From: a virus
IMG/VR virus record: IMGVR_UViG_3300025646_005482
Location: 96,331 to 160,330 of that record
Direction: 5' to 3' (one strand)
Length of the DNA stretch: 64,000 nt
In this document: positions 40,404-53,432 of the stretch, piece by piece
Layout of the letters: every line of letters starts with the position of its first letter
Position numbering within the stretch: position 1 is the stretch's first letter
Made by a program: the position numbers and the translations under genes
The notes under the pieces: generated by a model
Seen by the model: only the letters and a program-made list of their open reading frames with translations
Told to the model about the DNA's origin: nothing
The model's database searches: none

Positions 40404-42045
40404 TATTAAGGATATTGAGGAATACCGTTCATATCTCGGTAATATAAACCTCAAGCGTAAAGGCGTTACTATAGAATGGACCGAAGACATGGTCAAGGAG
40501 TTCATGAAGTGCGCCAAAGATCCCATCTATTTTGCTGAGCGGTATATTCAGATTGTCCATGTAGATCACGGACTCATACCAATCAAGCTCTACGAATATC
40601 AAAAGGACATCATTGAAAAAACCACAAAGAACAGAAGAACATGCGTGGTTACAAGCCGGCAGGCGGGTAAGACAACGACTGCTGTTTGCCTTATACTCCA
40701 TTATATTCTTTTTAACGATCATAAGCTTGTCGCTCTTCTCGCAAACAAAGGAGATGCTGCGAGAGAAATATTGGATCGTATCAAGACGGCTTATGAAGCT
40801 CTGCCGAAATGGTTGCAGCAAGGTGTCATCGAATGGAACAAAGGATCGGTAGAATTTGAGAATGGTTCTAAGATTCTTGCAGCAGCCACATCATCATCAG
40901 CAATTCGAGGTAAATCAGTATCTTTTCTTTATATAGACGAAACAGCATTCGTAGAGAACTGGGACGAATTCTTCGCTTCGGTATTTCCTACAATTTCTTC
41001 TGGTACAACAACCAAAATTCTTTTGACATCGACACCGAACGGTCTGAATCACTTCTACAAGACGTGCGAAGGAGCGAAAGCGGGCAAGAACGGGTATCAG
41101 TTCGTACAAGTACTATGGACTGACGTACCAGGTCGAGATGATAAATGGCGAGAAGAAACACTCGCCGCGATGGACTTTGACACAGAGAAATTTGCGCAGG
41201 AAATGGAATGTGAATTTCTCGGTTCGTCAGGTACATTGATCGCAGGCTGGAAACTCAAGCAACTCGTATATAAAGAGTCTATAAAAGAAGTAGGCGGTAT
41301 TATAGTATATGAAGAGCCAAAATTAGAAGGCAATTATGTCATAGTCGTCGACGTGAGTAGAGGCAAAGGCCTTGACTACTCGGCTTTCCAAGTCATCGAC
41401 ATCACACAAATGCCTTATGTTCAGGTTGGTGCATATCGTAATAATATGATCACACCTGTAGATTACGCTGCTGCTGTACACGCAGCTGCAAAGTATTTTA
41501 ACGATGCTAATATACTCGTTGAAGTCAATGATATCGGAGAACAAGTTTCCGGTATTATTTTTGAAGAATACGAATACGAAAATATGTTACTGACAGAAAA
41601 CAATGGACGAGAAGGTAAGCGTCTATTGTCTGGTGTAGCAGGATTCAACGGCAGAGCAGATAAAGGTATACGTACTACTAAATCTGTCAAGTCTATCGGT
41701 TGTTCTATGATCAAACTGCTCGTAGAACAGAATCAATTGATCATCAATGATTTTGAAACTATTCGCGAGTTCTCTACTTTTAGTCAGAAGGGAACTTCAT
41801 ATGAAGCAGAACCAGGCAATCATGACGATTTAGTCATGTGCCTTGTACTTTTCGGTTGGTTATCCAATCAGAAATTTTTTAAAGAGCTCACTGATATAAA
41901 TACTGTCATAAACCTCAAAGAGATGAACGAGGAAAAAGTTTTTAGCGAATTGGTACCCTTCGGTATGATAGATGACGGTCAGAAAGATTTCGAGGACCCA
42001 CACCCGGTGTCAACTCGAGGCAATGACATTAATTGGTTACTTTGA
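40393..42045 (+). CDS. 17: Terminase large subunit gp17
   Basis: 550 residues. Walker A is SRQAGKTT (88-95) and Walker B with the catalytic Glu is FLYIDE (178-183). A coupling motif LLTSTPNG follows. The C-terminal nuclease begins VVDVSRGKGLDYSAF, with Asp320 in the place of T4 Asp401 and Asp328 in that of Asp409. gp17 is the ATP-driven packaging motor and headful nuclease. It is expressed with gp13-gp16. A TATAAATA at 41895 inside its 3' end codes for D-I-N-T and may be chance. Confidence 0.95.
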   Translation: MTVDIKDIEEYRSYLGNINLKRKGVTIEWTEDMVKEFMKCAKDPIYFAERYIQIVHVDHGLIPIKLYEYQKDIIEKTTKNRRTCVVTSRQAGKTTTAVCLILHYILFNDHKLVALLANKGDAAREILDRIKTAYEALPKWLQQGVIEWNKGSVEFENGSKILAAATSSSAIRGKSVSFLYIDETAFVENWDEFFASVFPTISSGTTTKILLTSTPNGLNHFYKTCEGAKAGKNGYQFVQVLWTDVPGRDDKWREETLAAMDFDTEKFAQEMECEFLGSSGTLIAGWKLKQLVYKESIKEVGGIIVYEEPKLEGNYVIVVDVSRGKGLDYSAFQVIDITQMPYVQVGAYRNNMITPVDYAAAVHAAAKYFNDANILVEVNDIGEQVSGIIFEEYEYENMLLTENNGREGKRLLSGVAGFNGRADKGIRTTKSVKSIGCSMIKLLVEQNQLIINDFETIREFSTFSQKGTSYEAEPGNHDDLVMCLVLFGWLSNQKFFKELTDINTVINLKEMNEEKVFSELVPFGMIDDGQKDFEDPHPVSTRGNDINWLL

Positions 42046-50026: not shown

Positions 50027-51328
50027 ATGAATTTAAATGAACAAATTCGAAACAAGTGGGCACCAGTGATCTCTCACCCTGATCTTCCTGAAATCACTGA
50101 TTCCCACAAGAAAATGGTTACCGCTATGGTCCTCGAGAACACCGAGCGTGCTCTTCGAGAGGCTGCTTCACAAGGCGCTACCCAGCAACTTCTTTCTGAA
50201 ACACCTTCTAACACCATCGGTGATAACTTCGGCGGCCAGTTCGCTGGTTTCGATCCGATCCTCATCAGCCTTGTTCGTCGTACTCTGCCGAACCTGATGG
50301 CTTATGATGTATGTGGCGTTCAGCCTATGACTGGACCGACTGGTTTGATCTTCGCTCTTAGCGCTCAGTACGCTCCGGATGGTGCTAACACCACTCCTCG
50401 TACCGAAGCTATGTACGACGAAGCCGACACCGACTTCTCTGGTACTGGCACCCATTCTGGTAACTCTCAGACTGGTGGCAAAGGTACTGGTATGACTACT
50501 GCCGCTGCTGAATCACTCGGCGTGTCTGGTGGTACTGCATTCGGTGAGATGGCGATGAAGATCGACAAAGTTACTGTAACTGCTAAGTCACGTGCGTTGA
50601 AGGCGGATTACTCGCTTGAACTCGCTCAAGACCTGAAAGCAGTACACGGTCTTGACGCCGAAGCTGAACTCAGCAACATCCTCGCTGCTGAGATCTTGGC
50701 TGAAATCAACCGCGAAGTAATTCGTACGATCAACCTTGCAGCTGTAGCTGGTTCACAAGGCACTGTATCTTCTAACGGTACTTTCGACCTTGACGTTGAC
50801 GCTTCAGGTCGTTGGTCAGTTGAGAAGTTCAAGGGCCTGATGTTCCACATCGAGCGTGAAGCTAACAAAGTAGCCAAGGACACTCGACGTGGTAAGGCTA
50901 ACCTGATCATCTGTTCTTCTGACGTAGCTTCTGCTCTTCAGATGGCTGGTGTTCTGGATTACACGCCTGCTCTGAACAGCAACTCTTTGGCTGTTGACGA
51001 TACTGGCAACACCTTCGCTGGTGTACTGAACGGTCGGTTCCGTGTATACATCGACCCCTATGCAACTACTAACTACATGAACATCGGCTACAAGGGTGCA
51101 GGCGCATTTGACGCTGGCATCTTCTACTGCCCCTATGTTCCTCTGCAGATGGTACGTGCGGTCGATCAGGATACCTTCCAGCCGAAGATTGGTTTCAAGA
51201 CTCGTTACGGTCTGGTCGAGAACCCCTTCGCTCACTCAGTACAAGGTACGCCTGCTGTATCCGACGGTGCAATCACCAACGGTACCAACGCATACTATCG
51301 TATGTCTACGGTCAGCAACCTGTTGTAA
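50027..51328 (+). CDS. 23: Major capsid protein gp23
   Basis: 433 residues (T4: 521; marine relatives are shorter). DPILISLVRRTLPNLMAYDVCGVQPMTGPTGLIFAL is the hallmark gp23 block, and KVTVTAKSRALKADYSLELAQDLKAVHGLDAE and the GRFRVYIDPYA region confirm it. QLLSE ending at Glu58 is an [L]-x-Glu site, the predicted gp21 cleavage point that would leave about 375 residues. The gene uses more C- and G-ending codons than its neighbours, as expected for the most abundant protein. It is followed by a strong terminator. Confidence 0.97.
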   Translation: MNLNEQIRNKWAPVISHPDLPEITDSHKKMVTAMVLENTERALREAASQGATQQLLSETPSNTIGDNFGGQFAGFDPILISLVRRTLPNLMAYDVCGVQPMTGPTGLIFALSAQYAPDGANTTPRTEAMYDEADTDFSGTGTHSGNSQTGGKGTGMTTAAAESLGVSGGTAFGEMAMKIDKVTVTAKSRALKADYSLELAQDLKAVHGLDAEAELSNILAAEILAEINREVIRTINLAAVAGSQGTVSSNGTFDLDVDASGRWSVEKFKGLMFHIEREANKVAKDTRRGKANLIICSSDVASALQMAGVLDYTPALNSNSLAVDDTGNTFAGVLNGRFRVYIDPYATTNYMNIGYKGAGAFDAGIFYCPYVPLQMVRAVDQDTFQPKIGFKTRYGLVENPFAHSVQGTPAVSDGAITNGTNAYYRMSTVSNLL

Positions 51329-51356: not shown

Positions 51357-51382
51357 AAAGGGAGCTTCGGCTCCCTTTTTTT
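51357..51382 (+). terminator. Intrinsic terminator after gp23
   Basis: 9-bp stem AAAGGGAGC/GCTCCCTTT with the stable TTCG tetraloop and a T-tract, 29 nt after the gp23 stop. The T-tract runs into the late promoter at 51384. Confidence 0.95.
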
Positions 51383-51383
51383 G

Positions 51384-51391
51384 TATAAATA
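51384..51391 (+). promoter_or_regulatory. Late promoter TATAAATA for the 30-residue gene
   Basis: Perfect match one base after the gp23 terminator T-tract, 43 nt upstream of the ATG at 51427. Confidence 0.85.
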
Positions 51392-51426
51392 ATAAGCTCA
51401 TAAGAGCGTAACAAAGGAGGGAAACT

Positions 51427-51519
51427 ATGGACCTTAACCTACCACTTGTCGGTAAAATCCACTGGCCGTCGCTACTCCTCGGAGGTGGAGTGGTCTTAGT
51501 ACTCGCTATTTTGTTGTAA
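51427..51519 (+). CDS. 30-residue membrane microprotein
   Basis: An ATG at 51427 has one of the best ribosome binding sites in the window (AAAGGAGGG, 5 nt before the start) and opens a 30-codon frame ending in TAA at 51517-51519. The product starts polar (DLNLPLVGKIHWP) and then has one hydrophobic helix (SLLLGGGVVLVLAILL) to its end. It has its own late promoter (51384) and its own terminator (51535), so it is a separate transcription unit between gp23 and a gp19-like gene. No family recognised. It may act in membrane targeting, lysis timing or head maturation; none of these is shown. Confidence 0.75.
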   Translation: MDLNLPLVGKIHWPSLLLGGGVVLVLAILL

Positions 51520-51534
51520 TCTGATCATGAGCGA

Positions 51535-51557
51535 CGGGGACTTCGGTCCCCGTTTTT
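51535..51557 (+). terminator. Intrinsic terminator after the microprotein gene
   Basis: 7-bp stem CGGGGAC/GTCCCCG with a TTCG loop and TTTTT, 15 nt after the stop. The last T is also the first base of the next late promoter. Confidence 0.9.
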
Positions 51558-51564
51558 ATAAATA
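51557..51564 (+). promoter_or_regulatory. Late promoter TATAAATA fused to a terminator T-tract
   Basis: Perfect match sharing its first T with the terminator, 33 nt upstream of the ATG at 51590. A TATAAT at 51578-51583, seventeen nt after TTTATA at 51555, also resembles a sigma70 promoter but would start transcription at the start codon. Confidence 0.8.
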
Positions 51565-51589
51565 ATAGAAAACATGGTATAATATTTTT

Positions 51590-52096
51590 ATGGCAATGAA
51601 CAAGAATATGCTATCGCCAGTCGGCTTTAGTTTCCATATCAAAAAATTACCAGAGCTGAACTTCTTTGTTCAGAGTGTAACTATGCCTGGCGTGAATCTG
51701 CCTGTGTTTGAGCAACCTACCCCGCTTAAATCTATTCCTCGTATAGGTGATCACCTTCAATATGGAGAATTGACAGTCAACTTCAAAATTAATGAAGATT
51801 TAGGAAACTATATCGAGATATATGATTGGCTCGTGGGTATTAGTTTCCCTGATTCTTATACTCAATATAAAGAAATAGCTGCTGAAAGCAAACAATTAAC
51901 AGGTGATGGTATTGAATCTGATGGTTATATGATGATCTTGTCATCTGCTATGAACCCTGTAGTTCGTATTGATTTCGAAGATATGTTTCCTATTGGCCTC
52001 AGTGATATCACTATGGATTCACGTGATACGGGCATTGAATATCTCGATGCTACTGCTACGTTTAAATTCCTCAAATATAGATTTACATCGCTCTAG
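51590..52096 (+). CDS. gp19-family tail tube-like protein
   Basis: 168 residues, the same length as gp19 here. FHIKKLPELNFFVQSVTMPGVNLP, then IPRIGDHLQYGELTVNFKINEDL and a final ATATFKFLKYRFTSL follow the tube-protein fold pattern (initial strand, MPG loop, GEL-TVNFK-EDL strand, closing strand). Proteins of this type at this location in T4-like phages may form the tube-baseplate junction or a minor tube ring. I cannot separate gp54-type initiator from a second gp19. There is no clear ribosome binding site. Confidence 0.75.
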   Translation: MAMNKNMLSPVGFSFHIKKLPELNFFVQSVTMPGVNLPVFEQPTPLKSIPRIGDHLQYGELTVNFKINEDLGNYIEIYDWLVGISFPDSYTQYKEIAAESKQLTGDGIESDGYMMILSSAMNPVVRIDFEDMFPIGLSDITMDSRDTGIEYLDATATFKFLKYRFTSL

Positions 52097-52131: not shown

Positions 52132-52566
52132 ATGACTCTTGATGAAATCTTTGAATTATGGGGCGAGGATACTCAGATCGACAGAACTGAGTTAGGCAAC
52201 GCCGCACTTGAACTAGCTAAACTACATCACAAGTACTATCGTATCTTTTCTCAAGAAAGATTGATTCATAAGAAGCTCGAAGCAGACATGAAACAGTTGA
52301 AGCTTGATAAGCTTGAGTTCTACGTAGACGGACCTACAGAAGAACAAATAGAGAAAGGTTGGAAGTTACCGCCAAAGGGACGTATCCTCAAATCAGACGC
52401 TGGTCAATATGTCGATGCAGACTCTGACGTCATTGCGCTTAACCTCAAACTTGCGTATCAGCAAGAAAAGCTAGAGCTATTAGCAGACATCATCAAAACA
52501 ATTTCTAATCGTGGATTCCATATCAAATCTGCGATTGATTGGGAAAGGTTCAAAGTCGGCGCATGA
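52132..52566 (+). CDS. uvsY: UvsY recombination mediator
   Basis: 144 residues (T4: 137). Helical, with an N-terminal IDRTELGNAALELAKLHHKYYRIF, a central LKSDAGQYVDADSDVIALNLKL segment and the ending IKTISNRGFHIKSAIDWERFKVG, which parallels the T4 ending. UvsY loads the UvsX recombinase on gp32-coated single strands. It is preceded by a sigma70-like promoter. The epimerase gene begins inside its stop codon (ATGA). Confidence 0.85.
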   Translation: MTLDEIFELWGEDTQIDRTELGNAALELAKLHHKYYRIFSQERLIHKKLEADMKQLKLDKLEFYVDGPTEEQIEKGWKLPPKGRILKSDAGQYVDADSDVIALNLKLAYQQEKLELLADIIKTISNRGFHIKSAIDWERFKVGA

Positions 52567-53432
52567 AGATAGTAGTGACAGGGGCCTGTGGTTACATAGG
52601 TTCACATCTTGTAGTAAGACTCGCCGAGCTCGGTTATGAAGTCATATCAACTACAAATAATATTACAGAAAATCATGAACTGGTTAAAAAGCATTCTTAT
52701 GTTTTAAGATTTACCGCAAACCAACGTCATGATATGTATCTTGAACAGTCTGATACGTTGATACATCTCGGCGGATATATTTCTGTAGAAGAATCAATGA
52801 CAGATCCACTCAAATATTATCATGGAAATACTTCCGAGACGATTAGATTATTGAAAGATTATAAATGGAAGAATGTTATCTTTGCTTCTACAGCAGCATG
52901 CTTTGACCCTGTATCTCATTATGCCAAATCAAAGCTAGCATGTGAATGGGCAATCAGAGCAATTGCACCAAACTACACTATCTTTCGTTTCTTTAATGTA
53001 GCAGGTATCAATGAAGGACATCACTATGTCAATCCGACTACTCATATCATCAGTAAGCTAGCTGAATGCGCTGTCAATAAAACAAAGTTTATCATGAACG
53101 GCCATGATTTTGATACACCTGATGGTACATGTGTAAGAGATTATATCGATGTCAATGATCTAGTAGAAGCAATTGTGAAGGCAATAAATAAACCTGCCAA
53201 TACTGAATACGAATGTTTGGGCTGTGGTTTAGGTTATTCAAACAAAGCAGTGTTGCATACGATGGAATCAGTGATAGGAAAACACGTCGACTATGATTAT
53301 GGCCCGCGAAGAGATGGTGATCCTGCTCGCCTTGTTGTACCCGAAGTTTCTTCTTATTTAAATCCAACTAAAACACTAGCTGACATGTGTAAGTCGACGT
53401 ATGGATATTTTAAGAATCTCAAAGATCAATGA
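52563..53432 (+). CDS. galE: UDP-glucose 4-epimerase-like (GalE-type) SDR enzyme
   Basis: 289 residues from the ATG at 52563, which overlaps the uvsY stop by 4 nt; an upstream in-frame ATG at 52539 lies within uvsY. VTGACGYIGSH is the NAD-binding glycine motif. FASTAACF supplies the catalytic Ser/Thr region, and Tyr120 and Lys124 (HYAKSK) are the YxxxK pair. DGTCVRDYIDVNDLVEA is the GalE-specific substrate block. It lies between uvsY and uvsW, which are neighbours in T4, so it is an insertion. It could interconvert UDP-glucose and UDP-galactose for glycosylation of phage DNA or a cell surface, but this is inferred. It overlaps uvsW by 32 nt. Confidence 0.8.
   Translation: MKIVVTGACGYIGSHLVVRLAELGYEVISTTNNITENHELVKKHSYVLRFTANQRHDMYLEQSDTLIHLGGYISVEESMTDPLKYYHGNTSETIRLLKDYKWKNVIFASTAACFDPVSHYAKSKLACEWAIRAIAPNYTIFRFFNVAGINEGHHYVNPTTHIISKLAECAVNKTKFIMNGHDFDTPDGTCVRDYIDVNDLVEAIVKAINKPANTEYECLGCGLGYSNKAVLHTMESVIGKHVDYDYGPRRDGDPARLVVPEVSSYLNPTKTLADMCKSTYGYFKNLKDQ

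What the first reader, a model, noticed from the sequence alone, without database searches (positions are those of the whole stretch)
51357..51564. Isolated 30-residue membrane gene in its own late transcription unit
Between gp23 and the gp19-like gene there is a TTCG terminator, a late promoter, a strong AAAGGAGGG ribosome binding site, a 30-codon membrane gene, a second TTCG terminator, then another late promoter. Dedicated control on both sides for a microprotein implies a high, separate expression need. It is too short for most gene callers and may be undescribed.
Basis: partly seen in the sequence, partly recalled or inferred. Interest (0 to 1): 0.65.

Follow-up and report, generated by a model that had tools for sequence, protein, structure and literature searches.

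The report
Optional 30-residue phage membrane gene
A T4-like virus of bacteria carries, between its capsid and tail-tube genes, a real but undescribed 30-residue membrane protein gene packaged with its own on and off switches, and close relatives gain or lose this package as a unit, so it is an optional extra rather than a core part of the virus.

Summary
At 51357-51564 there are a TTCG terminator, a T4-type late promoter, a small leader hairpin, a strong ribosome binding site, a 30-codon ORF with one membrane helix, a second TTCG terminator and a second late promoter. These are the only two TTCG terminators in 64 kb. The ORF is genuine: nine IMG/VR contigs encode it intact at the same place. 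They form two lineages, 73% identical in protein between them, with dN/dS 0.06-0.25 in comparisons with the window. It has no match in Pfam, PHROGs, NCBIfam, PDB sequences or INPHARED phages. The first terminator and the second promoter are not dedicated to it: relatives lacking the gene keep the gp23 terminator, late promoter and tail-tube gene. The insert is a promoter-gene-terminator module. Three relatives with 93-94% identical gp23 have an empty site, joined in two of them within an 11-base repeat that contains the late promoter. One relative carries a 67-base deletion that removes the membrane segment. The second lineage lacks the upstream late promoter, so separate control is not essential. 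Best reading: a dispensable late accessory gene in a known kind of cargo slot, probably encoding an inner-membrane peptide that modifies the infected cell envelope. That function is inferred, not shown.

The parts
50027..51328 (+). gp23 major capsid protein; left boundary of the cargo slot
   Evidence: 62% protein identity to gp23 of Stenotrophomonas phage DLP6, about 60% to Sinorhizobium phiM12 and Pelagibacter HTVC008M
51357..51378 (+). TTCG-tetraloop intrinsic terminator of gp23; also kept in relatives lacking the microgene
51384..51394 (+). Late promoter TATAAATA (51384-51391) inside the first copy of an 11-bp direct repeat TATAAATAATA
51396..51407 (+). Small leader hairpin GCTC-ATAA-GAGC; GCCC-GCAT-GGGC at the same place in the second lineage, one compensatory pair
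51413..51421 (+). Strong Shine-Dalgarno AAAGGAGGG
   Evidence: AAAGGAGGG or AAAGGAGAG in L083/L092/L093/L094/L101, ACGAGGAGAA in L104-L108
51427..51519 (+). 30-codon microgene, MDLNLPLVGKIHWPSLLLGGGVVLVLAILL; hydrophobic helix about residues 14-30, predicted N-in
51534..51553 (+). Second TTCG terminator, belongs to the inserted module
   Evidence: absent from empty-site relatives
51557..51567 (+). Late promoter TATAAATA (51557-51564) of the tail-tube gene inside the second copy of the 11-bp repeat TATAAATAATA
51590..52096 (+). Tail tube / gp3-like protein; right boundary of the cargo slot
   Evidence: phrog_45 tail tube E=2.7e-31; similar genes in 710 phage records, annotated as gp3, tail completion or tail tube in the listed rows

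Best explanation
It is a genuine protein-coding microgene carried as an optional late-expressed cassette (late promoter, leader hairpin, ribosome binding site, ORF, terminator) in the cargo slot between gp23 and the tail-tube gene of a T4-superfamily phage. Shown from sequence: coding, conservation in two lineages, modular gain or loss, and late-promoter/terminator architecture. Inferred: late in infection, gp55-type late transcription makes a short mRNA, and the peptide inserts as a single N-in/C-out helix in the host inner membrane. There it most likely adjusts the infected cell envelope (exclusion of superinfecting phage, lysis timing, or binding to a host membrane complex) rather than serving in the virion. 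The cassette is probably lost, and perhaps gained, by recombination between the two 11-bp late-promoter repeats.
For: Nine IMG/VR contigs encode the full-length protein at the same position. Between the two lineages 32 of 90 bases differ but only 8 of 30 residues; random placement of the same changes never did as well in 20000 trials and gave a stop in 62%. Within the window's lineage, most changes are at third codon positions. Three relatives with 93-94% identical gp23 lack the cassette; in L001 and L002 the join falls in the repeat TATAAATAATA. L005 is a copy of the L093 type with a 67-bp deletion from codon 20 through the terminator, while the next 600 bases are identical. L101 stacks a second module (promoter, 111-aa predicted secreted protein, terminator) behind the first. 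Of 135 distinct gp23-tube junctions examined, 49 have longer gaps (over 170 nt), many with cargo of varied content. AlphaFold gives one helix, residues 4-29, mean pLDDT 82.
Against: No expression or localisation data. The second lineage lacks TATAAATA upstream of the ORF, so late expression from its own promoter is not general. The family is small and patchy. The hydrophobic segment is short (about 17 residues). Nothing in the sequence distinguishes the proposed membrane functions.
Confidence: 0.55

Rival explanations
1. Virion or assembly role: the peptide is a minor head or tail-tube component, or an assembly aid, which would explain its place between capsid and tail-tube genes.
For: Position between two structural genes and late promoter.
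Against: Absent or truncated in close relatives with 93-97% identical gp23; the slot holds unrelated cargo in other phages; strongly hydrophobic peptide in a phage class whose virions have no membrane (general knowledge).
Confidence: 0.1
2. Lysis or holin-like accessory: a small pinhole-forming or antiholin-like peptide that tunes lysis time. (A special case of the membrane role in the best explanation, stated separately because it can be tested separately.)
For: Single short hydrophobic helix with a GGG motif, late timing, strong ribosome binding site.
Against: No sequence match to any holin family; the gene is dispensable, so it cannot be the only holin; its neighbours are not lysis genes (the whole genome was not annotated for lysis genes).
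Confidence: 0.2
3. The conserved element is RNA or a translated leader: the module is a regulatory stem-loop and promoter composite, and the ORF is only a spacer or leader peptide controlling the tail-tube gene.
For: Terminator and promoter composites recur after gp23 in many phages; small leader hairpin with one compensatory pair.
Against: Synonymous-biased change across the whole ORF; a strong terminator and separate promoter lie between the ORF and the tube gene; weak Rfam matches over the region are all far below the families' own cut-offs.
Confidence: 0.08
4. Selfish or neutral cargo: a transient passenger with no benefit to the phage, held briefly before deletion.
For: Patchy presence, recent deletion in L005, presence and absence interleaved on trees.
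Against: Purifying selection across about 30% gp23 divergence.
Confidence: 0.1

Closest known systems
PeSL cassettes of T4-like phages (Arbiol et al. 2010; Comeau et al. 2014; cited in PMC4503421)
   Same: Stem-loop terminator fused to a promoter flanks a small non-core gene; related phages differ by insertion or deletion at these composites
   Different: Here the promoter is the late TATAAATA type and the site lies inside the core head/tail gene block, not in an early hyperplastic region. The primary papers were not held in the library; the comparison rests on the citing paper and my own knowledge
Morons of lambdoid phages (own knowledge)
   Same: Autonomous promoter-gene-terminator unit inserted between two otherwise adjacent structural genes
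   Different: Lytic T4-type phage and late phage promoter rather than expression from a prophage
Single-pass bacterial microproteins such as the 27-residue YohP (PMC7549839)
   Same: Size class and essentially one transmembrane helix
   Different: Phage-encoded; no sequence relationship known (not compared directly here)

Membership tests
PeSL-type mobile regulatory cassette | Composite of stem-loop terminator and promoter bounding a variable gene | tested here: met
   Terminator and TATAAATA on both sides of the ORF; L101 has a third terminator with TACATAAATA
PeSL-type mobile regulatory cassette | Promoter is an early sigma70-type promoter | tested here: not met
   The bounding promoters are TATAAATA late promoters; so this is PeSL-like in working, not a PeSL
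PeSL-type mobile regulatory cassette | Indels between relatives with joins at the composite | tested here: met
   Empty sites in L001 and L002 join within TATAAATAATA; L003 joins at the diverged motif CATAAATAA; L005 is a different, illegitimate deletion
Moron | Own promoter and terminator, inserted between genes adjacent in relatives | tested here: met
   Window, L093, L094, L101 against L001-L003
Moron | Expressed from the prophage during lysogeny | not testable with these tools
   Prophage state was not examined; T4-type phages are generally lytic (general knowledge)
Holin or lysis protein | Sequence match to a holin family | tested here: not met
   No match in Pfam, PHROGs or NCBIfam
Holin or lysis protein | Membrane permeabilisation at a set time | not testable with these tools
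   Needs expression experiments

The most novel reading that the evidence does not exclude
Late promoter and terminator composites work as joints that let T4-superfamily phages swap single microgenes into the otherwise rigid head/tail gene block, a late counterpart of PeSLs, and this family of about 30-residue helices is a new envelope-acting effector spread that way.
Probability: 0.25. Interest if true: 0.6.

Novelty: new variant of a known kind. Interest (0 to 1): 0.4.

Why it matters
It shows a real gene that common phage protein libraries and named phage records miss, in one of the best-conserved regions of the T4 superfamily, and it gives a clear example, with filled, empty, stacked and half-deleted sites, of a single-gene late cassette being gained or lost. 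That makes it testable whether late promoter and terminator composites drive small-gene turnover in core phage regions.

Tried and rejected
tblastn of both forms of the 30-mer against INPHARED gave nothing at E=10; the segment is short and low-complexity, so this is weak evidence of absence, but distant blastn of the whole module matched named phages only over the terminator segments in the listed rows. A photosynthesis small-subunit idea was dropped: the 160-kb record has no psbA or chlorophyll-binding family, and gp23 is closest to phages of Proteobacteria, so a cyanobacterial host is not supported. The single genome-contig hit is a chance match inside an unrelated frame. A PDB profile hit at E=8.5 (PRD1 P16 helix) is not significant. 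Rfam hits over the region are sub-threshold. The idea that the TATAAATA pair at 41895/42058 marks another microgene failed: the first copy lies inside the preceding long coding frame. KIHW-type pattern hits elsewhere (L084-L091, L095-L100, L102) have ORFs that do not match the family.

Full report
Observation. The region was read base by base. The terminator 51357-51378, late promoter 51384-51391, AAAGGAGGG 51413-51421, ORF 51427-51519, second terminator 51534-51553 and second late promoter 51557-51564 are all present. Both hairpins fold far better than shuffles (z -4.5 and -4.1). A scan for TTCG-loop terminators finds exactly these two in the 64-kb window on either strand and none in 200 simulated sequences. 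TATAAATA is found 14 times, all on the + strand, against 4.9 expected. Many copies stand before late genes (portal gp20, a prohead protein, gp22, gp23, the microgene, the tail tube), so in this phage it behaves as the T4-type late promoter; the same motif is reported for cyanomyoviruses in PMC2984593.

Context. The order is gp23, microgene, tail-tube-family protein (PHROG 45; similar genes in 710 phage records, named gp3, tail completion or tail tube in the listed rows), UvsY, a nucleotide-sugar epimerase, a UvsW-type helicase. The window is part of a 160,330-base virus record. Its gp23 is closest, at 59-62%, to Stenotrophomonas phage DLP6, Sinorhizobium phages and Pelagibacter phages, and the record has no psbA or chlorophyll-binding gene; the host is unknown.

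Is the ORF a gene? DNA-pattern scans of IMG/VR found nine further contigs with a full-length copy, all in the same place. L092 has gp23 and tail-tube proteins identical to the window's and may be the same virus. L093, L094 and L101 differ from the window by one or two residues. L104-L108 form a second lineage, MDLNLPLIGKLHLPSAALGGGLVLVLLWLL, 73% identical, in phages whose gp23 is about 70% identical. Changes are mostly synonymous: dN/dS 0.06-0.16 within the first lineage against the window and 0.24 between lineages, and random placement of the 32 changes never gave so few residue changes without a stop in 20000 trials. Twenty-one of 30 residues are invariant. No match exists in Pfam, PHROGs, NCBIfam or PDB sequences at a significant level. 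The structure prediction is a single helix. The membrane nature rests on the hydrophobic run P14-L30; orientation N-in is inferred from K10 and H12.

What belongs to what. L001, L002 and L003, whose gp23 is 93-94% identical to the window's, have gp23, one terminator, one late promoter and the tube gene, without the microgene. So the first terminator is gp23's and the last promoter is the tube gene's. The inserted unit is promoter, leader hairpin, ORF and second terminator. In the window the two promoter copies share exactly TATAAATAATA, and the empty sites of L001 and L002 read as the left side of copy one joined to the right side of copy two. This is what deletion or insertion by recombination between the repeats would give; the mechanism is inferred.

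Loss and stacking. L005 matches L093 almost base for base (its next 600 bases are identical) but lacks 67 bp from codon 20 through the terminator, leaving a 23-residue frame without the membrane part. Presence and absence are interleaved on gp23 and tail-tube trees: L094 and L001 are sisters on the tube tree (support 98/97) although L001 lacks the gene. L101 carries a second promoter-gene-terminator unit, a 111-residue protein with a signal-like N-terminus, behind the first. Among 135 distinct gp23-tube junctions collected, 86 have gaps of 170 nt or less and so no room for cargo, and 49 have longer gaps, many with inserted genes. The cargo includes a weak GIY-YIG match, a NUMOD3 motif protein and a cyanophage outer-membrane beta-barrel, and a different 61-residue protein with one hydrophobic segment in L130. 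The sample was gathered by similarity to this phage and is not a census.

The L104-L108 lineage has no TATAAATA between the gp23 terminator and the ORF, so there the gene must depend on read-through or another promoter. A dedicated late promoter is therefore a property of the window's lineage, not of the gene family. A strong ribosome binding site is kept in both lineages and is better evidence for substantial translation.

Mechanism. Most likely a late accessory peptide in the host inner membrane. Its dispensability argues against a virion or essential lysis role. Among membrane roles, exclusion of superinfecting phage, tuning of lysis and binding to a host membrane complex cannot be separated from sequence; I put about 0.35 on exclusion or host-complex modulation, 0.2 on lysis tuning, and leave the rest open. 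The module works like a moron and like a PeSL, but a defining PeSL feature, the early promoter, was tested and not met, so I do not file it as one. The primary PeSL papers were not held; I rely on the citing paper PMC4503421 and general knowledge.

Noticed in passing
window 51557-51590: The tail-tube gene has no visible Shine-Dalgarno, and a TATAAT (51578-51583, TTTATA-17-TATAAT with TG) sits just before its ATG; a TATAAT-like box is kept in L001-L003, L005 and L101. A sigma70 transcript from it would begin at or very near the start codon, possibly leaderless.
   Followed up: partly
L130:1993-2175: A relative with 85% gp23 identity to L108 carries at the same site an unrelated 61-residue protein with one hydrophobic segment, preceded by TTGACA-17-TACAAT and by TATAAATA; no tblastn hit in named phages.
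   Followed up: partly
L101:4052-4387 (- strand): A 111-residue cysteine-containing protein with a signal-like N-terminus in a second late cassette right after the microgene; no confident family match.
   Followed up: partly
L037:3139-3732, L170:2212-2808, L172:3927-4589: Homing-endonuclease-like ORFs (weak GIY-YIG match in L037, NUMOD3 motif in L170, GIY-YIG-like by eye in L172) occupy the gp23-tube slot in other phages, comparable to segD after gene 23 in T4 (own knowledge).
   Followed up: partly
window 52539-53432: A nucleotide-sugar epimerase gene (PHROG 540) sits between uvsY and uvsW and is absent there in L094, L101 and L108.
   Followed up: no
window 1-64000: No tRNA genes in the 64 kb by ARAGORN.
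   Followed up: no
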